DNA of 44,331 nt from Candidatus Omnitrophota bacterium (GCA_016208765.1 JACQXK010000121.1:1-44331); one strand, 5' to 3'. Shown: positions 2,191 to 11,929, counted from the first letter of the stretch. Made by a program: numbers and translations. Notes: generated by a model from the sequence alone, not told the origin.

Positions 2191-3279
2191 ATGAAACATA
2201 AAATTACATTGATACCCGGTGATGGGATAGGCCCGGAAGTAGCAGAAGCCGCAAAACGCTGTATCCAAGCCACAGGCGTAGATATTGAGTGGGAGAAAAT
2301 GTATGCCGGCTCAGATGCTTTTAAAGAAACAGGAAATTTGCTTCCGCAGGAAACCCTTGAATCTGTAAGAAAGAATAAAGTCGCGCTAAAAGGCCCGATT
2401 GTAACTCCTATCGGCGAGGGATTCCGTTCTGTTAACGTAGCAATCAGGCATGAGTTGGACTTATTTGCTTGTGTCAGGCCCGCAAAGACTTATCCCGGAG
2501 TAAAAAGCTACTACAAAGATATTGATCTTGTTATTATAAGAGAAAACAGCGAAGATCTATACGCCGGAATTGAGTTTGAACAAGGAAAAGACGATACCGA
2601 AAAACTTATTAAGGATATTGAAAAATATTCCGCAAAAAAGATTCATCAAGGCTCAGGCATATCCATTAAGCCGATTTCTGAGTTTGCCACCCAGAGAATA
2701 GTCAAGTTTGCTTTTGAATATGCCATAAAAAACAACCGTAGGAAGATTACCGTGGTAACTAAAGCAAATATCATGAAGTTTACTGACGGGCTTTTCTTAA
2801 AAGTTGCCCGCGCCATCAGTAAACAGTATACTCAAAAAATCCAGTTTGAAGAAGCCTTAGTTGATAATATGGCAATGCAGCTTGTGCAAAAGCCTCATAA
2901 TTTTGACATTTTGGTTTTACCTAATCTTTATGGTGATATACTTTCTGATCTTTGCGCAGGGCTTGTAGGAGGATTAGGAGTAGCTCCGGGGGCTAACTTA
3001 GGTGACGATCTTGCCGTATTTGAGGCAGTACATGGTTCTGCTCCAAAATATAAGGGGTTGAACAAGGTTAACCCGACGGCCATGATTCTATCCGGGGTAT
3101 TAATGTTAAGGCACATTAAGGAAGATAAAGCTGCAGACAGGCTTGAAAATGCCGTAAAAGAAGTAATTTCTGAAGGCAGGTTTGTTACCTATGATTTGAA
3201 AGCTGATCCTAAGGACCCGTCTTGTGTTGGAACAAAAGAAATGGCCGATGCAATTATTAATAAAATAACAGGTAGATAA
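2191..3279 (+). CDS. Isocitrate dehydrogenase (short type)
   Basis: A 362-aa beta-decarboxylating dehydrogenase that oxidises isocitrate to 2-oxoglutarate. The isocitrate signature S-x-N-x-x-x-R is present (S80, N82, R86), followed by R96 and R117, with Y124 and K192 as catalytic candidates. Isopropylmalate dehydrogenases lack the Ser-Asn pair, so this is not leuB. It is shorter than E. coli Icd (about 416 aa), like NAD-type enzymes. Yet the adenine-ribose pocket reads PKYKGLNKVNP, keeping K287, Y288 and V294, which match the E. coli NADP determinants K344, Y345 and V351. Y335 matches Y391, but the R395 position is Ala339. Cofactor preference is therefore uncertain. The order aconitase-like, IDH, MDH suggests a short TCA-type operon. 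Confidence 0.88.
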   Translation: MKHKITLIPGDGIGPEVAEAAKRCIQATGVDIEWEKMYAGSDAFKETGNLLPQETLESVRKNKVALKGPIVTPIGEGFRSVNVAIRHELDLFACVRPAKTYPGVKSYYKDIDLVIIRENSEDLYAGIEFEQGKDDTEKLIKDIEKYSAKKIHQGSGISIKPISEFATQRIVKFAFEYAIKNNRRKITVVTKANIMKFTDGLFLKVARAISKQYTQKIQFEEALVDNMAMQLVQKPHNFDILVLPNLYGDILSDLCAGLVGGLGVAPGANLGDDLAVFEAVHGSAPKYKGLNKVNPTAMILSGVLMLRHIKEDKAADRLENAVKEVISEGRFVTYDLKADPKDPSCVGTKEMADAIINKITGR

Positions 3280-3280
3280 A

Positions 3281-4201
3281 GTGAAAATATCGGTAATCGG
3301 TGCAGGAAATGTTGGTAGTTTAGCAGCAATGAGGATTGCCCAGGAGAAACTGGGCAATGTTGTTTTAGTAGATGTTGTAAAAGGTATGGCCCAAGGTAAG
3401 TCCTGTGACTTGGAAGACGCTCAAATGCTTCTGAATGTTGATTACAGCATAGAAGGAACGGATGATATAACAAAAATAAAGAGTTCTAATATCGTTGTTG
3501 TTACTGCAGGGCTTGCCCGTAAGCCAGGGATGACCCGTGAAGAACTTCTTTTAAAGAATTCTGAAATTCTCAAGAATATTTGTATTAGTATAAAAAACTA
3601 CGCTCCCGAAGCAATTGTTATAATCGTAACTAATCCTTTGGATTTGATGACTTACCTTGCTCTTAAGATTACAGGTTTTAAGCGTGAAAAGTTGTTTGGC
3701 ATGGGTATCAGCCTTGATGCGGCAAGATTTGCAAATCTTATCAGCAAAGAATTAAAGGTTCCTATAACAGAAATAGAAGCCTGTGTGATAGGTAGCCACG
3801 GAGAAGGCATGGTTCCTTTGGCAGAATTTAGCAGTGTTAAAGGAACAAGCCTGTTAAAATTACTTAATCAGGAAAAGATAGATGAGCTCTTTAAAAAAAC
3901 AGTTTACAGGGGGGCAGAGATCGTTTCTTTGCTTGGTTCTGGCAGCGCGTTTTTTGCTCCATCTGCAGCAATAGCGCAGATAGTTAAGATTATTGCAAAA
4001 GACCAAAAACAGGTAATCGGTGTTTGCGCCAGCCTTTCTGGAGAATATGGCATAGATGATATTTGTACCGGGGTGCCTGCTCGTATTGGCATCAACGGCA
4101 TTGAGCAAATAATTGAACTCAAGCTTAGCAAAGAAAATAATAATTTATTAATCAAGGCTGTGGAATCTATCCGCAGCCTTGCCAAACAATTACCTTTATA
4201 A
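3281..4201 (+). CDS. mdh: Malate dehydrogenase (LDH-like type)
   Basis: A 306-aa NAD-dependent dehydrogenase interconverting malate and oxaloacetate. It opens with the Rossmann motif GAGNVG. The substrate loop ARKPGMTREELL has the Arg that distinguishes malate from lactate dehydrogenases. The catalytic Asp and substrate Arg lie in GISLDAARF, and the catalytic His is in GSHGEGMVPLAEF. Most relatives read HGDTMVP there, so HGEGMVP is a mild variant. The start is GTG, 1 nt after the isocitrate dehydrogenase stop, and the gene continues the same operon. Confidence 0.92.
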   Translation: MKISVIGAGNVGSLAAMRIAQEKLGNVVLVDVVKGMAQGKSCDLEDAQMLLNVDYSIEGTDDITKIKSSNIVVVTAGLARKPGMTREELLLKNSEILKNICISIKNYAPEAIVIIVTNPLDLMTYLALKITGFKREKLFGMGISLDAARFANLISKELKVPITEIEACVIGSHGEGMVPLAEFSSVKGTSLLKLLNQEKIDELFKKTVYRGAEIVSLLGSGSAFFAPSAAIAQIVKIIAKDQKQVIGVCASLSGEYGIDDICTGVPARIGINGIEQIIELKLSKENNNLLIKAVESIRSLAKQLPL

Positions 4202-4202
4202 A

Positions 4203-5492
4203 ATGTACGATCTTGTTATTATCGGAGCTGGCTGGGCAGGTTTTAATGCAGCATTAAAAGCAAAAGAACTTGGATTAAAAGTTTGCTTGATTGAGCAGTC
4301 TAACGTCGGAGGAACATGCCTTAACAAAGGTTGTATTCCTACAAAAACATTGATACAATCCGCAAAAGTATTCGCATTGACAAAAAAACTACACAGTTTC
4401 GGGATAGAAGCAGGTGAATCAAAACTAATCTTTTCCAGGGTTCAAGAAAGAAAAGACAGCATTATTGATCATTTACAAAAAGGAATGAAATTTATGCTTA
4501 AGGGCATAGATTTTATTAATTCCAAGGCAGAATTTTTGTCAAGCGATGAAGTTTCTGCAGGCTCGCAAAACATAAAATCAGAATATTTCTTAATTGCTAC
4601 CGGTTCAGAAGCCATAGAATTGCCTTTTATGAAGTTTGATTCAAAAAGAATTATCTCAAGTGACGAAATCCTTAACCTTAAAGAATTACCAGATACATTA
4701 CTTATTGTTGGAGGCGGTGTAATTGGATGTGAATTTGCCAGTTTATTTTCAACCCTGGGCAGCAAAGTAACAATTGTTGAGAAAATGATGCAGTTGTTAC
4801 CGCAGGAAGATAAAGAAATTTCCAGAAGGATAGAGCTTTCATTTAAGAAAAAGAATATCATTATCCATACAAATACAGATGTTAGAAACTTGAATTTATC
4901 AGAATATGCGTTAGCCCTTGTTTGCGTAGGAAGGTCTCCCACGTTTAAAGGGCTAAAGCTGGAGAACGCCGGGTTAAAAATAGAAAATAACAAAATAACG
5001 GTTGATGATTATTTACGTACAAGTGTTAAGAATATATATGCTGCCGGAGATTGCACCGGCAAGACCATGCTTGCTCATTATGCCAGCTATCAAGGAGAAA
5101 TCGCCGCATTGAATATCGCAAAGCAGGACCAGCCTAAAAAGGCAGATAACAAATATATACCTAATTGTATTTTTACGGATCCTGAAATTGGAAGCGTCGG
5201 GTTAAACGAAGAAACGGCTAAAGCTGCTGGGATTGAAATATCGGTAAAGAAATTTGATTTTCTTGCGTCAGGTATGGCAAGAATCCTTGACGAAACAGAA
5301 GGATTTATAAAAATTATCTGCAACAATAAAACCGATGAAATAATAGGCGCATCAATACTTGGCCCGAGGGCAACAGAATTAATAGGAATTCTTACGTTAG
5401 CCGCATCCTGTAAATTAAGGCCCAATGTTTTTAGCGACATAGTATTTGCCCATCCCACGCTAACAGAGTCAATCGGAGAGATACTTAAGTGA
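4203..5492 (+). CDS. lpdA: Dihydrolipoamide dehydrogenase (E3)
   Basis: A flavoprotein disulfide reductase that reoxidises dihydrolipoyl groups with NAD+. The N-terminal FAD motif is VIIGAGWAGFNAA and the redox disulfide is GGTCLNKGCIPTK. A second dinucleotide fold, VGGGVIGCEFASLF, lies mid-protein, and the C-terminal catalytic His-Glu pair is in AHPTLTESIGEIL. I chose the ATG at 4203, just after the mdh stop; an in-frame ATG at 4179 would add 8 residues before the FAD motif and overlap mdh. The 429 aa are slightly short for the family (about 450-475). The next gene is a free lipoyl domain, a plausible substrate. No E1 or E2 catalytic subunit is visible, so the partner complex (2-oxoacid dehydrogenase or glycine cleavage) lies elsewhere. 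Confidence 0.92.
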   Translation: MYDLVIIGAGWAGFNAALKAKELGLKVCLIEQSNVGGTCLNKGCIPTKTLIQSAKVFALTKKLHSFGIEAGESKLIFSRVQERKDSIIDHLQKGMKFMLKGIDFINSKAEFLSSDEVSAGSQNIKSEYFLIATGSEAIELPFMKFDSKRIISSDEILNLKELPDTLLIVGGGVIGCEFASLFSTLGSKVTIVEKMMQLLPQEDKEISRRIELSFKKKNIIIHTNTDVRNLNLSEYALALVCVGRSPTFKGLKLENAGLKIENNKITVDDYLRTSVKNIYAAGDCTGKTMLAHYASYQGEIAALNIAKQDQPKKADNKYIPNCIFTDPEIGSVGLNEETAKAAGIEISVKKFDFLASGMARILDETEGFIKIICNNKTDEIIGASILGPRATELIGILTLAASCKLRPNVFSDIVFAHPTLTESIGEILK

Positions 5493-5553
5493 GGTTTTTT
5501 TCTTAGCCTTAGTACTTTTAAAGTAGAAGTCAAGCATAGAAAGGAGCTCTAAA

Positions 5554-5790
5554 ATGAAAAAACTAATATTACCGGAGCTGGGAGAAGGAATTTCAAAGGC
5601 GACTGTTTCTTACTGGTATTTCAAAGATGGGGACAAAGTGGGCCAAAACGATGACTTAGTGGAATTGGCTACCGACAAAGCAACTTTTAATTTACCAAGC
5701 CCTTGCTCAGGGACTATCACAGAGATCTTATTTCATGAAGGAGATACTGTAAATACCGGAGAAGTTTTAGCAGTAATTGAAGAAGCTTAA
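5554..5790 (+). CDS. Free-standing lipoyl-domain protein
   Basis: This 78-aa protein is a single lipoyl/biotinyl hammerhead domain with nothing else attached. It starts MKKLILPELGEGISKATV like the first lipoyl domain of 2-oxoacid dehydrogenase E2 subunits. The lipoylation loop is ATDKATFNLPS with the acceptor K42. DKA favours lipoate; biotin domains read AMK. The ribosome site is AAAGGAG. It follows dihydrolipoamide dehydrogenase and ends just before a strong terminator. Normal E2 proteins continue with an E1/E3-binding and an acyltransferase domain, both absent without any sign of a frameshift. It is not a typical glycine-cleavage H protein, which is longer (about 125 aa). The likely role is a mobile electron or acyl carrier; its partners are unknown. 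Confidence 0.85.
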   Translation: MKKLILPELGEGISKATVSYWYFKDGDKVGQNDDLVELATDKATFNLPSPCSGTITEILFHEGDTVNTGEVLAVIEEA

Positions 5791-5811: not shown

Positions 5812-5854
5812 CCGCAGATGCCTAAACTAATTTAAGGAATCTGCGGTTTTTTTT
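5812..5854 (+). terminator. Rho-independent terminator after the lipoyl-protein gene
   Basis: A 12-bp stem with one mismatch (CCGCAGATGCCT pairing with AGGAATCTGCGG) encloses an 11-nt loop and is followed by eight T residues. It ends the carbon-metabolism operon before the promoter at 5868. Confidence 0.9.
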
Positions 5855-5867
5855 GTTACAGTGCGAA

Positions 5868-5896
5868 TTGACATTATTGGATTTTATTAGTATAAT
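5868..5896 (+). promoter_or_regulatory. Consensus sigma-70 promoter for the fabG-ketosynthase operon
   Basis: A perfect -35 TTGACA (5868-5873), a 17-bp spacer and a perfect -10 TATAAT (5891-5896). Transcription should begin near 5903, leaving a leader of about 50 nt before the fabG ribosome site (AAGGGAG). It lies directly behind the terminator at 5812-5854, which makes it an independent transcription unit. No operator repeat stands out. Confidence 0.88.
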
Positions 5897-5951
5897 TAAA
5901 GTTTAAATAGATGTTTTCCCGTCTAAAAATAAACTATTAAGGGAGAAAAGA

Positions 5952-6698
5952 ATGCAACTTAGAAATAAAATAGCAATAATAAGCGGGGCAACAAGAGGGA
6001 TCGGGCGAGCAATCGCAATAGAGCTGGCAAAAGCAGGGGCAAACATAAGTTTCAATTACCTTAAAAGCAGCCAAAATGCCATAGAGCTTGAAGAACAAGT
6101 CAAGTCTTTCGGAGTCAAGGCAAGATCTTTTCAGTCGGATATCAGGGATTTTGAATCTGTTAAAAACTGGGTAGAAGAAAGCCGTGAGTTCTTCGGGACA
6201 ATTGATATTGTGATTAATAATGCAGGGATCATTAAAGATAAGGCGCTTGCTTTAATGGACATTTCTGACTGGACGGACGTGATTAACACCAATTTAACAG
6301 GGGCATTTAATCTTACCCGTGCCGCAGTTATTACTCTGCTAAAACAAAAAAGCGGAAGCATAATTAATATAAGCTCTGTGAGCGGAATTCGGGGCATCCC
6401 GCGTCAAACAAACTATTCTGCCTCAAAAGCCGGGCTAATCGGATTTACCAAGTCTTTAGCACAGGAATGCGCCGGTTATAATGTCAGGGTTAATGCAGTT
6501 GCTCCTGGATTTATTGAAACAGATATGTTATCTGACCTAAGGCAGGATTATAAAGAAAAAATATTAAAATTTATCCCGCTTGGCAGAATGGGAAGAGCCG
6601 AGGAAGTAGCAAAGGCAGTTAAATTTCTGGCAAGCGAAAGTTCTAATTATATTACCGGTCAAACAATTGTAGTTGACGGCGGAATGGCGATCGTATAG
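5952..6698 (+). CDS. fabG: 3-oxoacyl-ACP reductase, FabG-type SDR
   Basis: A 248-aa short-chain dehydrogenase of standard FabG length that reduces 3-oxoacyl-ACP with NAD(P)H. It shows the cofactor motif SGATRGIGRA, the NNAGI motif, and the catalytic Ser-Tyr-Lys set in ISSVSGI and YSASKAG. The C-terminal PGFIETDM and the ending TGQTIVVDGGMA are typical of FabG. It is the first gene of a cassette under the promoter at 5868 and is 2 nt from the pseudo-ketosynthase gene. It probably serves as ketoreductase for whatever chain this cassette makes. Confidence 0.92.
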   Translation: MQLRNKIAIISGATRGIGRAIAIELAKAGANISFNYLKSSQNAIELEEQVKSFGVKARSFQSDIRDFESVKNWVEESREFFGTIDIVINNAGIIKDKALALMDISDWTDVINTNLTGAFNLTRAAVITLLKQKSGSIINISSVSGIRGIPRQTNYSASKAGLIGFTKSLAQECAGYNVRVNAVAPGFIETDMLSDLRQDYKEKILKFIPLGRMGRAEEVAKAVKFLASESSNYITGQTIVVDGGMAIV

Positions 6699-6700
6699 AA

Positions 6701-7933
6701 ATGGAGCAAGACAAAATAGTAATCACCGGAGTTGGAGTAATTGCTCCTAATGGGATCGGTAAGGAAAATTTCTGGGAAGCGCTAAGGCGCGGTAAAAACG
6801 GCATAAAACCCATAACAATCTTTGATACGGCACCTTATAAAGCCAAGCTCGCGGGAGAAATTTATGATTTTGATCCTGCCGCTGTTTTAGGCCCAAAGGG
6901 CTTAAGAGACATAGACCGGGCCACTAAATTGCTTTGTTCTTCGGCAAAATTAGCTCTTGATGATGCAAATCTTGTAGTTAATGATTCTAATACCGATAAA
7001 ATCGGGGTATGCACCGGCACAACATTGTCAAGCCTTGGAAATTTAACTGAATTTAACAGACAGGTAATAAAAGACGGGCCTCTTTTTACAGACGTCGGGC
7101 TTTTTCCCGGGACAGTGATTAATGCCGCCTCAAGCCATGTTTCAATACGATTTAATATCCAGGGTTTTAATTCAACAATCTCCAATGGGTTTACCTCAAG
7201 CCTGGATGCCTTGAAATATGCTGCAGATTTTATAAAATTTGGTAAAGCAGATGTGATATTGTTATGCGGAGTTGAAAGCTTAAACTTGACCAGCTTTTGC
7301 GGGTTATTAAAGATTGGTTTTCTTGCAGGAATTAACGGCCCGGAGATATCCTGCCCGTTTGATAGAAGAAGAAATGGCATGGTCATTGGCGAAGGCGCCG
7401 CGGTTTTGATCTTAGAAAGCGAAACTCACGCAAAAAAGAGAAATGCAAATATTTATTGTGAAGTAAAAAGCGCCACAAATCGTTTTTCTTTAGGTCAATC
7501 AACTGAGAAAAAAATCAGCACTACGGATATTAGAAAATGTATGCATGCTGCTATCACTGCGGCAGGTGTCTTGGAAAATGAAATTGATTTCATCAGCGCT
7601 AACGCAAATTCAACAAATGATCAGGATAAAACAGAAGCCCTTGCCATTAAGGAAACATTCAATGATACATGCAGGAATATCCCGGTCAGCTCAATTAAAT
7701 CAATGGTTGGAGAGACTTATAGTGCATCAGGTGCGTTGCAACTTGCTGCTGCGATCGGAAACATTACAAATAATTTTATTAACCCAATTTTAAATTTTGA
7801 AAAAAGCGACATTGAATGCAGTTTAGATTTTGTCTCTAATGCCGCAAGGCAGGTTAAATTAAATACAGTTTTAGTTAATAATTTTGGCCCGGAAGGAAAT
7901 TGCGCTTCCGCGGTTATTTCCAGATACAAGTAA
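6701..7933 (+). CDS. Ketosynthase-fold protein lacking all three catalytic residues (chain-length-factor-like)
   Basis: A 410-aa thiolase-fold protein of the FabF family, colinear with the active ketosynthase at 8705-9916. The catalytic triad is gone. The nucleophile Cys is Phe164 (SNGFTSSLDA where the partner has PTACAAANYS). The first His is Asn301 (ISANANST versus ISAHGTGT). The second His is Glu338 (KSMVGETYS versus KSMLGHTMG). The fold elements around these sites, such as FDRRRNGMVIGEGAAVL and the C-terminal NNFGPEGNCA, are kept, so it is not a decaying pseudogene. This matches chain-length factors (KS-beta) of type II polyketide and aryl-polyene systems, which dimerise with an active ketosynthase. 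The usual replacement there is Gln; Phe is unusual. Product unknown. Confidence 0.85.
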   Translation: MEQDKIVITGVGVIAPNGIGKENFWEALRRGKNGIKPITIFDTAPYKAKLAGEIYDFDPAAVLGPKGLRDIDRATKLLCSSAKLALDDANLVVNDSNTDKIGVCTGTTLSSLGNLTEFNRQVIKDGPLFTDVGLFPGTVINAASSHVSIRFNIQGFNSTISNGFTSSLDALKYAADFIKFGKADVILLCGVESLNLTSFCGLLKIGFLAGINGPEISCPFDRRRNGMVIGEGAAVLILESETHAKKRNANIYCEVKSATNRFSLGQSTEKKISTTDIRKCMHAAITAAGVLENEIDFISANANSTNDQDKTEALAIKETFNDTCRNIPVSSIKSMVGETYSASGALQLAAAIGNITNNFINPILNFEKSDIECSLDFVSNAARQVKLNTVLVNNFGPEGNCASAVISRYK

Positions 7934-8023
7934 TCCAGTTGCATCTTAAAAGCCAAAGCCTTAGGCAAATTTTCTAAAATCACGGTTGCTGAAATAATCT
8001 GTTTACTAAAGAGGAGGAAATGA

Positions 8024-8266
8024 ATGCCAGATACTCAAAACACTCAAGAAGAAATCAGGCAAATGGTAAGCGAAATTACCGAGGTCCCTTTGGAAAAGCT
8101 TACTTTAGAAGCCGATTTTTTTACTGATTTAAACGTTGATTCTTTAAAAGCAATAGAAATTGTTGCTGCTTTTGAGAAAAGATACAGAATTATTATTCCT
8201 GAGCAGGATATTCCTAAGATACGCAACGTTAAACAAATAGCTGAGTATACTAAAAATATAAAGTAG
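8024..8266 (+). CDS. Acyl carrier protein
   Basis: An 80-aa acidic ACP. The phosphopantetheine site is Ser40 in DLNVDSLKAIE, a close match to the canonical D-S-L motif. It has a strong ribosome site (GAGGAGG) about 8 nt before ATG. It follows the pseudo-ketosynthase after 90 nt and precedes fabZ by 5 nt. Because it is embedded in this cassette it may be a dedicated carrier, not the housekeeping AcpP. No separate acpP is in the window for comparison. Confidence 0.9.
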   Translation: MPDTQNTQEEIRQMVSEITEVPLEKLTLEADFFTDLNVDSLKAIEIVAAFEKRYRIIIPEQDIPKIRNVKQIAEYTKNIK

Positions 8267-8271
8267 GATTT

Positions 8272-8712
8272 ATGATTTTTGACTTAGAACTAATAAAATC
8301 AATTCTTCCTCAACGCGAGCCCTTTCTTTTTATTGACGAAGTTAGCCAAACCAGCGGCGCAGAAAAAGTAGTAGCTTCAAAATTCATAGATCCTAAAGAA
8401 GCTTATTTTAAAGGGCATTTTCCTGATAATCCCGTGATGCCTGGTGTATTAATTGTTGAGGCAATGGCGCAGGCATCAATTATTCTTTACTATTTAAACA
8501 AACCTGAAATTGCCAAAAAACATCCAAGTTATTATTTAGGCAAGGTAAAAACAGAATTTCTTGCTCCTGTTTTTCCGGGAGATACCCTTATTTTAGAGTC
8601 AGTTCCGGTAAAAATGATAGAGTCTGCTGCGGTTGTAGACGCCCTGGCCAGGGTGGGAGAAAAAATTGTGGCCAAGGCCGGCTTTATTTTTGGCGTGAAG
8701 AAAAATGAATAA
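8272..8712 (+). CDS. fabZ: 3-hydroxyacyl-ACP dehydratase, FabZ type
   Basis: A 146-aa hot-dog-fold dehydratase. The catalytic His49 and Glu63 lie in KGHFPDNPVMPGVLIVEAMAQ, the FabZ signature. The N-terminal motif normally written LPHRYPF reads LPQREPF here, with His changed to Gln and Tyr to Glu, a mild deviation. It removes water from 3-hydroxyacyl-ACP made by the FabG step. It overlaps the next gene by 8 nt. With reductase, dehydratase and ketosynthase present but no enoyl reductase nearby, the cassette could build polyenoic chains; that is inference, since a reductase could be encoded elsewhere. Confidence 0.9.
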   Translation: MIFDLELIKSILPQREPFLFIDEVSQTSGAEKVVASKFIDPKEAYFKGHFPDNPVMPGVLIVEAMAQASIILYYLNKPEIAKKHPSYYLGKVKTEFLAPVFPGDTLILESVPVKMIESAAVVDALARVGEKIVAKAGFIFGVKKNE

Positions 8713-9916
8713 AAAAAGAGTAGTGGTAACCGGATTAGGCATTATATCTTCTATCGGACAAGGCAAAGATGATTTTTGGAAATCACTGATCGCAGGTAAA
8801 AGCGGCATAAGCAAAGTCAGTTCATTTGATACTGCCGGGCTAAGATGCCATTCTGCCGGAGAAATAAAGGATTTTAATCCTGATAATTATTTTCCGTCTG
8901 TTGATTTCCCGTTTTTATCGCGAACCTCACAGTTGGGTATCGCTGCAACTGCCTTAGCATTTAAGGACGCTAAAATCAGTACAGACTTAATTGATCCTGA
9001 AACAACCGGAGTGATTATCGGCACTACTATGGGAGAAAAAAACCTTGAAACCACAGTTTCGGCATGGATCAATGGAGGGTGTGAAAATATTGAAAATAGC
9101 AAGATCCTCCAGTCAACCCCAAATAATATAAGTACGAATATAGGATTTTATTTTGGGATTACAGGCTGTAATTATTTAATTCCTACTGCATGTGCCGCGG
9201 CAAACTATTCCATAGGGTATGCTTTTGATTTAATTAGTTCAGGCCAAGTCAACTCTGCTATTGCCGGAGGGGTAGATTCTTTCTCTAAGATTGCTTTTTG
9301 CGGATTTCACAGGTTGTATGCCATGGCCCCTGAAAAATGCCAGCCTTTTGATAAAAACCGCAAGGGGATGCTTGTAGGAGAAGGCAGCGCGATGCTGCAC
9401 CTTGAACTGCTTGATTCTGCTTTAAAAAGAAACGCCCATATCTATGCCGAGATTTTAGGTTATGGGTTAAGTTGCGATGCCAGCCATATGACCCAGCCAA
9501 AAACAGAAGGCATTGAAAAGGCAATTCTTAAAGCCCTGAAAGAAACCGGGCTTAAAAAAGAAAACGTCAGCTATATCAGTGCGCATGGGACCGGGACTCC
9601 GGCAAATGATAAAGCAGAATGTGCTGCCATTAAGAAAGTTTTTCCTGATAATTACGAGAACCTTCCGGTCAGTTCAATCAAATCCATGTTAGGCCATACC
9701 ATGGGGGCTGCTTCCGGAATTGAAGCAATCACGTGTTGCCTTAGCGTAGAAAATGACATTGTTCCTGCGACAATCAATTACGAAACACCGGACCCTGAAT
9801 GCGGTATTGACTGTGTGCCAAACACTGCCCGTAAACATAAAGTAGAAGTTGCTCTTAATAACGGATTTGCCTTTGGCGGCAACAATGCCTGCGTGGTATT
9901 TAAAAAGTTTTCGTAA
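8705..9916 (+). CDS. Beta-ketoacyl-ACP synthase, FabF type, with intact active site
   Basis: A 403-aa condensing enzyme, the usual FabF length. The full Cys-His-His set is present: C163 in PTACAAANYS, H294 in ISAHGTGTP and H331 in SSIKSMLGHTMG. It catalyses decarboxylative condensation of malonyl-ACP with acyl-ACP. It opens KKRVVVTGLGIIS and ends with the glycine-rich NNGFAFGGNNACVVF. It overlaps fabZ by 8 nt and is the last gene of the cassette. With the inactive paralogue at 6701-7933 it could form a KS/CLF heterodimer. Whether it serves general fatty acid synthesis or a special lipid or pigment cannot be told from sequence alone. Confidence 0.92.
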   Translation: MNKKRVVVTGLGIISSIGQGKDDFWKSLIAGKSGISKVSSFDTAGLRCHSAGEIKDFNPDNYFPSVDFPFLSRTSQLGIAATALAFKDAKISTDLIDPETTGVIIGTTMGEKNLETTVSAWINGGCENIENSKILQSTPNNISTNIGFYFGITGCNYLIPTACAAANYSIGYAFDLISSGQVNSAIAGGVDSFSKIAFCGFHRLYAMAPEKCQPFDKNRKGMLVGEGSAMLHLELLDSALKRNAHIYAEILGYGLSCDASHMTQPKTEGIEKAILKALKETGLKKENVSYISAHGTGTPANDKAECAAIKKVFPDNYENLPVSSIKSMLGHTMGAASGIEAITCCLSVENDIVPATINYETPDPECGIDCVPNTARKHKVEVALNNGFAFGGNNACVVFKKFS

Positions 9917-9980: not shown

Positions 9981-11492
9981 GTGGATATCCGAATCGGAGT
10001 AACCCGCACAACAATTTTTGCCGCTCTTTACTCGCTCGTTCTGGGCCTGCCTTTTGCTATAGCCGGTTGGTTCAAAGAATCGCTTTTTAATTTATTTGGC
10101 CCTATATGGTGGATTGCGCCATTGAGTTTGATGGCGCTATTAGCAATAATCGGGCCTTTTTTATATATTTATATTGAGAGATTAGCAGAAGAGAGCCTGC
10201 TAAAAGAACAACGGCTCTACCACGAAACACTTAAACATGCAGCTTCAGGCATGACACGTATCCGTAACTTACGCAGGCTACTTGAATTAATCACCCATAT
10301 TGTTACTAAAACTGTAAAGATTTCTTATGCCGCTATCTACCTGTATGATGCCGACAGGAATGAATATTTATTGCAGGTAAACCGCAATAAACAAATGCGC
10401 TCAATTCCCAGGTTATCAGCAGACAATCCGTTAATCATCAGGTTTTCCAAAGACCGTTCCCCTATTTTACTGGAAGGAAACGATCACAAGCCTGAACAGG
10501 TAACTAATGATGAAAAAACAAAAATCAATGAAAATATGCGCCAGCTTTGTGCTTCTGTAGTTATTCCAAGTTATCTGGGAGATAAACTTTCCGCCGTCTT
10601 TGTCCTCGGGGATAAAACCAGCGGACAAACTTATACCCGGGATGATTTAAGCGTATTTGAAGTATTGGCAAGCCAGGCAGCCCTTGCAATTGAAAACGCA
10701 AGATTTTATGAAGAGGCAAAGGAAATGCAGGAGCAGATTGCACAGGCAGAAAAAATGTCTACAATCGGCACAATGGCTGACGGATTATCCCATCAAATCA
10801 ACAACCGTTTTTACGCACTTTCGTTAATCGCCGGAGATACTATTGATTCTATCAGAAACACAGACACATCTAATTGCTCAGATGATATTAAAGCAATGTT
10901 AAAGGGAATAAATTATGCCCTGGAACGCATCCAGGCAAATGTAATACAGGGAGGAGAAGTGGTAAAAGGTTTGTTAAAATATTCCAGAAAAGATGATAAA
11001 TCCTTCGGCCCGCTTGAACTTAACAGTGTGATTGAAAATACCATTGCTATGGTTCAGTATAAAATCAGGCTTACCGAAGTTGACATTATCCACGACATTG
11101 CCTCAAATACGCCTAAAATTAAAGGTAACGCTACTCAGTTACAAGAAGTCTTCTTTAACTTTATTGACAATGCCTATGACGCAATCATGGAACGTAAAAC
11201 TACGTTTAATGAAAAAGGATACAGGGGAAAGATTGCGATCACGGCAAGACCAATGGAAACAGAAAACTACCTTGAGATCACCGTAGAAGATAACGGCATA
11301 GGAGTAAAAGAAGCTGATACAAAGAAAATCTTTACTCCTTTTTTTTCCACTAAGGTTTCCTCTCACACAGGAACAGGGCTTGGATTGTATGTAATTAAAC
11401 GCATTATCACAGAAACCCATAATGGGAAAGTCTCATTTGAATCTAAATATAAGGCCGGAACACGTTTTCTCGTGCATCTTCCTGTCGCGTAG
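9981..11492 (+). CDS. Membrane histidine kinase with GAF domain
   Basis: A 503-aa sensor kinase with a GTG start and an AAGGAG site upstream. Two membrane spans (about 10-30 and 42-66) are followed by a GAF domain (about 85-235), a short coiled segment, a HisKA-like helix and an HATPase domain. The phosphoacceptor is H271 in GLSHQINNRF. The family consensus there is H-E-x-N-N-P, so the usual Glu is Gln and the Pro is Arg, which could change phosphatase or kinase balance. ATP-binding boxes are FFNFIDNAYDAI, EDNGIGV and TGTGLGLYVIKRI. It precedes a receiver protein and a GAF-HD-GYP protein whose GAF domain resembles this one. A weak TTGTTT/TATGCT promoter-like pair lies at 9934-9963. Confidence 0.88.
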   Translation: MDIRIGVTRTTIFAALYSLVLGLPFAIAGWFKESLFNLFGPIWWIAPLSLMALLAIIGPFLYIYIERLAEESLLKEQRLYHETLKHAASGMTRIRNLRRLLELITHIVTKTVKISYAAIYLYDADRNEYLLQVNRNKQMRSIPRLSADNPLIIRFSKDRSPILLEGNDHKPEQVTNDEKTKINENMRQLCASVVIPSYLGDKLSAVFVLGDKTSGQTYTRDDLSVFEVLASQAALAIENARFYEEAKEMQEQIAQAEKMSTIGTMADGLSHQINNRFYALSLIAGDTIDSIRNTDTSNCSDDIKAMLKGINYALERIQANVIQGGEVVKGLLKYSRKDDKSFGPLELNSVIENTIAMVQYKIRLTEVDIIHDIASNTPKIKGNATQLQEVFFNFIDNAYDAIMERKTTFNEKGYRGKIAITARPMETENYLEITVEDNGIGVKEADTKKIFTPFFSTKVSSHTGTGLGLYVIKRIITETHNGKVSFESKYKAGTRFLVHLPVA

Positions 11493-11554: not shown

Positions 11555-11929
11555 ATGGCAAAGTTGCTGATAGTTGATGACGAGTTTGATGTCCGTGAAT
11601 TTGCCGCTAATTTTTTCCGTAAACGTAAAATTGACGTATCCACTGCCTCCGGAGGGCAAGAGGCTATTGATCATATTAAAAATAATAAACCTGACCTCAT
11701 ACTTCTTGATATTAACATGAAAGACATCAATGGGATTGAAACTTTACGCCGTTTAAAATTAATGAATGAAGAAATTAATGTTATTATGGTTACCGGCAAG
11801 AAACCTGAAGAAGAAGATGCTTACCAAGAGTGCAAGCAGTTGGGCGCGATAGATTATATTCATAAGCCCTTAGAGCTTGATGAGTTGGAGAGGATTGTAT
11901 TAAACCAGCTATTTAAAACAAAAAAATAA
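11555..11929 (+). CDS. Single-domain response regulator (CheY-like receiver)
   Basis: A 124-aa receiver domain with no output domain. The acidic pair is D8-D9, the phospho-acceptor is D52 in LILLDINMKD, and the switch residues are T80 in IMVTGKK and K104 in IHKPLEL. A strong AAAGGAGG site lies 8 nt before ATG. It stops directly before the ATG of the HD-GYP gene (11930). It is the obvious phosphorylation target of the neighbouring kinase. With no DNA-binding domain it probably acts by protein contact, perhaps with the HD-GYP protein. Confidence 0.92.
   Translation: MAKLLIVDDEFDVREFAANFFRKRKIDVSTASGGQEAIDHIKNNKPDLILLDINMKDINGIETLRRLKLMNEEINVIMVTGKKPEEEDAYQECKQLGAIDYIHKPLELDELERIVLNQLFKTKK

What the first reader, a model, noticed from the sequence alone, without database searches (positions are those of the whole stretch)
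5868..9916. Compact ketosynthase / pseudo-ketosynthase cassette
Seen: FabG, a KS-fold protein with Cys, His and His replaced by Phe164, Asn301 and Glu338, ACP, FabZ and an intact KS (C163, H294, H331), all under one consensus promoter and bounded by a terminator. Known: type II polyketide, aryl-polyene and some ladderane-type systems pair an active KS with a catalytically dead chain-length factor. Inference: this is a minimal KS-CLF module making an unusual acyl chain, perhaps polyenoic because no enoyl reductase is adjacent. No starter ligase, thioesterase, acyltransferase or exporter is visible, so it does not match a described cluster completely. Phe at the nucleophile position is unusual.
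Basis: partly seen in the sequence, partly recalled or inferred. Interest (0 to 1): 0.72.

Follow-up and report, generated by a model that had tools for sequence, protein, structure and literature searches.

The report
Ladderane-type paired ketosynthase cassette
These five genes probably build an unusual, likely polyunsaturated, fatty chain with one working and one inactive condensing enzyme; they belong to the same family as the unexplained lipid genes of anammox bacteria and are found widely in a class of uncultured bacteria.

Summary
In detail: FabG, a KS-fold protein lacking Cys/His/His, ACP, FabZ and an intact KS form one block behind a perfect sigma-70 promoter. The terminator lies upstream of that promoter, not at the cassette's end. 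The pseudo-KS is not a decayed FabF: it belongs to a 100/100-supported clade present in 67 of 285 sampled genomes of the phylum, evolves with its partner KS (r=0.73; 0 of 5000 permutations) and is under purifying selection (dN/dS about 0.09). Replacements are patterned: Cys163 to Phe/Tyr (58/63), Thr300 to Asn (63/63), His333 to Glu/Asp (63/63). Its closest solved relative, PDB 9s5h chain C, carries the residues published for anammox Kuste3606; the window's residues nearly match Kuste2805. So this is a ladderane-type KS/pseudo-KS cassette, not an actinorhodin-, aryl-polyene- or ishigamide-type KS-CLF. The genome has a separate fab operon and two more cassettes, one with acyl-ACP-reductase-like and CrtI-like enzymes. 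Best reading: a heterodimeric KS-CLF making a fixed-length, probably polyunsaturated acyl-ACP. The product is unknown; ladderanes are not implied. AntiSMASH "ladderane" clusters in such phyla are already reported, so this is a new member of a known kind.

The parts
5812..5854 (+). Intrinsic terminator ending the upstream lipoyl-domain operon (outside the cassette)
   Evidence: -20.8 kcal/mol, z -5.4; coordinates
5868..5896 (+). Sigma-70-type promoter TTGACA-17-TATAAT
   Evidence: 12/12
5952..6698 (+). FabG, 3-oxoacyl-ACP reductase; TGxxxGIG-like, Ser and YxxxK motifs present
   Evidence: TIGR01830 309 bits, above cut-off 297.75
6701..7933 (+). Pseudo-ketosynthase (CLF-like): F164, N301, N303, K333, E338; starts 2 bases after FabG
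   Evidence: (9s5h_C 9e-101)
8024..8266 (+). Acyl carrier protein with DSL phosphopantetheine site
   Evidence: (PF00550)
8272..8712 (+). FabZ dehydratase; best PDB hits 7qv0 and 8ayb
8705..9916 (+). Active ketosynthase C163/H294/H331, overlapping FabZ by 8 bases
   Evidence: (9s5h_B 7e-141)
9981..11492 (+). Histidine kinase (HK6 family) recurrently linked to these cassettes; possibly co-transcribed
11555..11929 (+). Response regulator receiver protein (not a core part; similar neighbourhood in G001 and G014)

Best explanation
The cassette encodes a ladderane-type (anammox Kuste3605/3606-like) heterodimeric ketosynthase. The intact KS condenses malonyl-ACP onto the growing chain; the pseudo-KS is a non-catalytic, chain-length-factor-like partner that completes the dimer, probably shapes the far end of the acyl tunnel, and may help dock the dedicated ACP. 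FabG and FabZ reduce and dehydrate each round; no enoyl reductase is linked, so double bonds are probably kept, and the product is a fixed-length, (poly)unsaturated acyl-ACP made beside normal fatty acid synthesis. In sister cassettes the acyl-ACP probably goes on to a CrtI-like flavin oxidoreductase and a thioester reductase (acyl-ACP-reductase/PigE-like or thioester-reductase-like). Shown: gene content, residue signature, clade, co-evolution, purifying selection. Inferred: heterodimer, tunnel role, polyunsaturation, downstream chemistry.
For: PDB 9s5h/9s5i holds a KS and a pseudo-KS as separate chains (with an ACP in 9s5i) that are the best hits of the window KS (7e-141) and pseudo-KS (9e-101); 9s5h_C carries V-N-Y-G-K-E-Q and R, the eight residues listed for Kuste3606. 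Window F-N-N-T-K-E-Q resembles Kuste2805 F-N-N-C-K-E-Q. FabZ best hits are 7qv0/8ayb. 23 pseudo-KSs including 9s5h_C form one clade, 100/100. Mirror-tree r=0.731 over 45 pairs, 0 of 5000 permutations, and the true own-paralogue assignment scores best of 72. Partner KS is CHH in 48/48 and is found in 32 of 40 well-covered loci. dN/dS 0.09 against G001, with NGFTSSLDALKYA unchanged. Same five-gene order in seven loci, including UBA6902. Separate fab operon. No FabK found.
Against: No biochemical evidence. Ten loci have the pseudo-KS with FabG but no linked KS; in four of those genomes (G168, G164, G227, G205) no partner-type KS was found at all. The KS lacks the Asp113 that ishigamide KS uses for intermediate release (Met in 36/48), so polyene formation cannot simply be copied across. 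The congeneric G001 copy has a frameshift near residue 66. The window cassette itself has no CrtI-like enzyme or thioester reductase. Absence of an enoyl reductase genome-wide is not settled: the FabV search had no working control.
Confidence: 0.72

Rival explanations
1. The pseudo-KS is a decayed or neofunctionalised FabF duplicate with no obligate partner; the cassette is an accessory fatty-acid elongation operon.
For: Faster evolution than the other cassette proteins (72-77% vs 83-92% identity to G001) and a frameshift in G001; ten loci without a linked KS.
Against: Single clade 100/100, patterned replacements (N300 63/63, K328 63/63, E/D333 63/63), dN/dS about 0.09, co-evolution with the KS.
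Confidence: 0.12
2. The pseudo-KS is itself a priming or decarboxylating enzyme, like the KSQ / Gln-type CLF that decarboxylates malonyl-ACP.
For: Lys328 is kept in all 63 and several residues are invariant, which could mean residual catalysis.
Against: Both decarboxylation histidines are lost in every member (H298 to N/S/C/A/G/T, H333 to E/D) and no Gln occurs at the nucleophile position.
Confidence: 0.06
3. It is a conjugated-polyene KS-CLF that works as the ishigamide or aryl-polyene enzymes do.
For: The partner KS clusters with Iga11 and a Streptomyces KS (99/96); gene set KS, CLF-like, ACP, KR, DH without a linked ER.
Against: The pseudo-KS does not group with the Streptomyces CLF found next to an Iga11-like KS (long branch); ApeC is half-size; Iga11 Asp113 is absent; no ligase, thioesterase or exporter in the cassette.
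Confidence: 0.2
4. It makes ladderane-like (cyclobutane) lipids outside anammox bacteria.
For: Same KS/pseudo-KS family as anammox; cobalamin radical SAM next to one related cassette (L087).
Against: Desulfotalea psychrophila has a similar cluster but no detectable ladderanes and makes C31:8/C31:9 hydrocarbons instead; no radical SAM in the window cassette or in most loci.
Confidence: 0.04

Closest known systems
Anammox FASII clusters kuste3603-3608 and kuste2802-2805 (Rattray 2009 PMC2649909; Javidpour 2016 PMC4790861) and PDB 9s5h/9s5i
   Same: Active KS plus non-canonical KS with Phe/Val-Asn-Glu signature, dedicated ACP and FabZ; best sequence relatives in PDB for KS and pseudo-KS, with FabZ nearest 7qv0/8ayb
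   Different: Window cassette has FabG inside and no CrtI-like or radical SAM gene; those occur only in some sister cassettes. No ladderane evidence
Desulfotalea psychrophila C31:8/C31:9 polyunsaturated-hydrocarbon clusters (PMC2649909)
   Same: Described as syntenic with the anammox clusters, with several FabF paralogues and phytoene-dehydrogenase-like genes, in an anaerobe
Ishigamide KS-CLF Iga11-Iga12 (PDB 6kxd)
   Same: KS is second-best PDB hit (2e-96) and falls in the same KS group (99/96)
   Different: CLF appears to be of a separate lineage; Asp113 absent; different accessory genes
Actinorhodin-type and aryl-polyene KS-CLF
   Same: Architecture of KS plus dead partner
   Different: Aromatic CLFs group with this genome's other (C5) pair, not with the pseudo-KS; CLF nucleophile position is Gln there; ApeC is half-size

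Membership tests
Ladderane-type (anammox) KS/pseudo-KS cassette | Pseudo-KS in one clade with 9s5h_C (Kuste3606-like) | tested here: met
   23 rows, 100/100
Ladderane-type (anammox) KS/pseudo-KS cassette | Cys163 and both His replaced, with Asn298 and Glu333, Lys328 kept | tested here: met
Ladderane-type (anammox) KS/pseudo-KS cassette | Intact partner KS of the 9s5h_B type | tested here: met
   (group also holds Iga11, 99/96)
Ladderane-type (anammox) KS/pseudo-KS cassette | Dedicated FabZ and ACP of the same type | tested here: inconclusive
   FabZ best hits 7qv0/8ayb; short ACP not discriminating
Ladderane-type (anammox) KS/pseudo-KS cassette | CrtI-like desaturase and radical SAM enzyme in the cluster (full ladderane cluster) | tested here: not met
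   absent in window; CrtI-like in 19 of 40 covered loci and in this genome's C79 cassette; radical SAM in 1 of 40. Hence filed as member of the KS/pseudo-KS core family, not as a ladderane cluster
Ladderane-type (anammox) KS/pseudo-KS cassette | Ladderane lipids | not testable with these tools
   no lipid data
Aromatic type II PKS KS-CLF | CLF of the act lineage with Gln at the nucleophile position, plus cyclases | tested here: not met
   Streptomyces CLF has Gln and groups with the C5 CLF, 100/99; no cyclase in window cassette
Aryl polyene | Half-size ApeC with ApeO, plus ligase, thioesterase, MMPL exporter | tested here: not met
   pseudo-KS is full length (410 aa; model pTM 0.90); gene set absent
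Ishigamide-type polyene KS-CLF | KS Asp113 and Iga12-type CLF | tested here: not met
   Met 36/48, Asp 0/48; Streptomyces CLF beside an Iga11-like KS lies outside the clade (long branch)
Ordinary degenerate FabF | No clade of its own, relaxed selection, no partner | tested here: not met

The most novel reading that the evidence does not exclude
A whole class of uncultured bacteria makes an undescribed polyunsaturated lipid or hydrocarbon by a modular pathway whose chain-building step is homologous to that of anammox ladderanes, with several paralogous cassettes per genome feeding different terminal reductases, and in some lineages with the partner KS taking the fabF position of the housekeeping fab operon.
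Probability: 0.3. Interest if true: 0.75.

Novelty: new member of a known kind. Interest (0 to 1): 0.45.

Why it matters
How anammox bacteria begin ladderane synthesis is unresolved. Dozens of divergent relatives of the same KS/pseudo-KS pair, mostly without radical SAM enzymes and sometimes reduced to five genes, give a minimal system for asking what that pair makes and why the dead subunit carries an invariant Asn and an acidic residue, with Phe or Tyr in place of the nucleophile. The residue pattern (63 sequences) turns the 2009 table of odd anammox proteins into a testable family signature.

Tried and rejected
Plasmid searches gave only ordinary FabF and actinomycete KS-CLF, no close relative of the pseudo-KS. 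Actinorhodin and aryl-polyene membership was tested and rejected. ApeC was left out of the tree (half-size); ApeO and the Streptomyces Iga-neighbour CLF are long branches, so their exact position is unsure. Foldseek of the pseudo-KS model returned FabF-type structures first (TM 0.93); 9s5h was not among the listed hits, so the fold search adds only that the fold is intact. The nearby LpxL-like and MGDG-synthase-like genes were considered as the cassette's acyl acceptors, but the MGDG-like gene has matches in all 40 relatives with or without a cassette. FabV absence could not be judged (control silent). The organism name was not obtainable; genome size and content suggest an Omnitrophota-like lineage, which is my guess only.

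Full report
OBSERVATION. FabG and pseudo-KS are 2 bases apart, ACP and FabZ 5 bases apart, FabZ and KS overlap by 8 bases, and there are 90 bases between pseudo-KS and ACP. The promoter at 5868 is a 12/12 match with a 17-base spacer. The terminator is upstream of that promoter (5812-5854, z -5.4) and closes the lipoyl-domain gene; no terminator was found between the KS and the following histidine kinase.

OWN GENOME. The 2.41 Mb genome carries three paralogous pseudo-KS/KS cassettes. C112 is the window. C79 holds a helix-turn-helix gene, a pseudo-KS with Met, an acyl-ACP-reductase/PigE-like reductase, ACP, KS, a CrtI-like oxidoreductase and a histidine kinase. C121 holds a helix-turn-helix gene, a pseudo-KS with Phe, FabZ, KS, ACP and a divergent third KS. 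The genome also has a separate housekeeping operon plsX-fabH-fabD-fabG-acpP-fabF (L023) and a fourth KS-CLF pair on C5 that groups with aromatic type II enzymes. So the window is not the only elongation locus. No FabK was found; none of the six SDR hits was shown to be FabI (not each tested); FabV could not be judged.

FAMILY. The best solved relatives are the chains of PDB 9s5h/9s5i: chain B for the KS (7e-141) and chain C for the pseudo-KS (9e-101), with an ACP in 9s5i. The tool gives no organism, but chain C shows V-N-Y-G-K-E-Q plus Arg at the eight positions that Rattray et al. list for Kuste3606 (PMC2649909). I therefore take it to be the Kuenenia Kuste3605/3606 complex or a close anammox homologue; this is an inference. 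The window pseudo-KS, F-N-N-T-K-E-Q, is one letter from the Kuste2805 pattern at the first seven positions of that table (at the eighth, Phe392 in Kuste2805, the window has Pro). FabZ is nearest to 7qv0/8ayb, which I recall as anammox FabZ structures. Kuste3603-3608 is ACP, FabZ, FabF, non-canonical FabF, phytoene desaturase-like and radical SAM (PMC4790861).

TREE. In a 73-sequence maximum-likelihood tree all 23 pseudo-KSs, 9s5h_C included, are one clade (100/100). The aromatic Streptomyces CLF groups with the C5-type CLF instead (100/99). The partner KSs form a group with 9s5h_B, Iga11 and a Streptomyces KS (99/96). FabFs are apart. Long branches make the placing of ApeO and the Streptomyces Iga-neighbour CLF unsure.

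CONSTRAINT. Across 63 pseudo-KSs: Cys163 is Phe 45, Tyr 13, Met 3, Ile 1, His 1; Thr300 is Asn in 63; Lys328 is kept in 63; His333 is Glu 59 or Asp 4; the residue at the FabF gating Phe position is Pro in 58. Partner KSs are Cys-His-His in 48 of 48. Pseudo-KS and KS distances correlate at r=0.731 over 45 cassettes (0 of 5000 permutations; maximum 0.218). Shared ancestry inflates such correlations; among 72 within-genome reassignments of paralogues the real pairing scores best, but by a narrow margin (0.731 against 0.726). Against the congeneric G001, dN/dS is about 0.09 for the pseudo-KS and 0.02-0.11 for the other genes (dS is near saturation, so values are rough). G001 has one frameshift in its pseudo-KS near residue 66, real or an assembly error.

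DISTRIBUTION. 67 of 285 sampled genomes of the phylum, in 60 of 224 genera and all in one class, hold a pseudo-KS of this type (E <= 1e-90). Outside it, UBA6902 (labelled Nitrospirota) has the same order FabG-pseudoKS-ACP-FabZ-KS. The exact window order occurs in seven loci. Within about 6.5 kb of the pseudo-KS in 40 well-covered loci: partner KS 32, SDR 32, FabZ 31, ACP 30, CrtI-like 19, thioester-reductase-like 13, acyl-ACP-reductase-like 9, radical SAM 1. Ten loci are split: the pseudo-KS and FabG (with FabZ in nine) have no linked KS; the two read in full stand in a riboflavin operon. In five of those genomes a partner-type KS lies elsewhere; in three of them it follows plsX-fabH-fabD, the usual fabF position, with CrtI-like and reductase genes. 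In one (G215) only fragments, and in four none, were found.

MECHANISM. Shown: conserved pairing, a dead and a live active site, purifying selection, co-evolution, a dedicated ACP, FabG and FabZ. Inferred: that the two form a heterodimer (supported by the homologous 9s5h entry, in which both chains are present), that the pseudo-KS sets chain length as CLFs do (PMC8358021), and that the chain keeps double bonds because no enoyl reductase is linked. The polyene inference is weakened because Asp113 of ishigamide KS is absent. Ladderanes are not implied: D. psychrophila, described as syntenic with the anammox clusters, makes C31:8/C31:9 hydrocarbons and no detectable ladderanes.

NOVELTY. AntiSMASH 'ladderane' clusters have already been reported from Omnitrophota and other phyla (PMC9902471), and KS-CLF pairs from Ca. 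Omnitrophica and Nitrospirae (PMC10132072). I did not find the residue signature, the co-evolution or the split arrangement described in the papers read, though the library is incomplete. Verdict: new member of a known kind, with an unknown product.

Noticed in passing
L024 (G000:C5:10000-25753); L060-L067: A second, aromatic-type KS-CLF pair (CLF nucleophile position Arg) with ACP, a B12-binding-type radical SAM protein and cyclase-like genes (the last judged by eye); the KS-CLF pair is about 69-96% identical across relatives of the order, so it looks like a conserved core trait of these bacteria.
   Followed up: partly
L132, L138, L148, L149, L152, L153, L154, L155, L161, L163; L195, L196, L199: Split arrangement: pseudo-KS-FabG(-FabZ) without a linked KS, in a ribD/ribE...ligA neighbourhood in the two loci read in full; in L195, L196 and L199 the partner KS follows plsX-fabH-fabD in the fabF position, with CrtI-like and reductase genes.
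   Followed up: partly
L022:9957-11267; also L054, L076, L082, L090, L092: A very divergent third ketosynthase (about 435 aa, Cys-His-His intact, own clade 100/100 on a 2.08 branch) recurs at the end of several cassettes; role unknown.
   Followed up: partly
window 2191-5790 and L081, L091, L092: The TCA/lipoyl block (IDH, MDH, dihydrolipoyl dehydrogenase, free-standing lipoyl-domain protein of 78 aa) or part of it stands directly upstream of a cassette in four loci, although the cassettes belong to different sub-clades.
   Followed up: no
window 9981-11492; L021, L074, L075, L076, L078, L079, L091, L092: A particular histidine kinase family with response regulators is repeatedly adjacent to cassettes, suggesting regulated expression.
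   Followed up: partly
L074 (G001:C64): The congeneric copy of the cassette has a frameshift in the pseudo-KS near residue 66, and the MGDG-like gene there is also in two pieces; assembly error or decay not resolved.
   Followed up: partly
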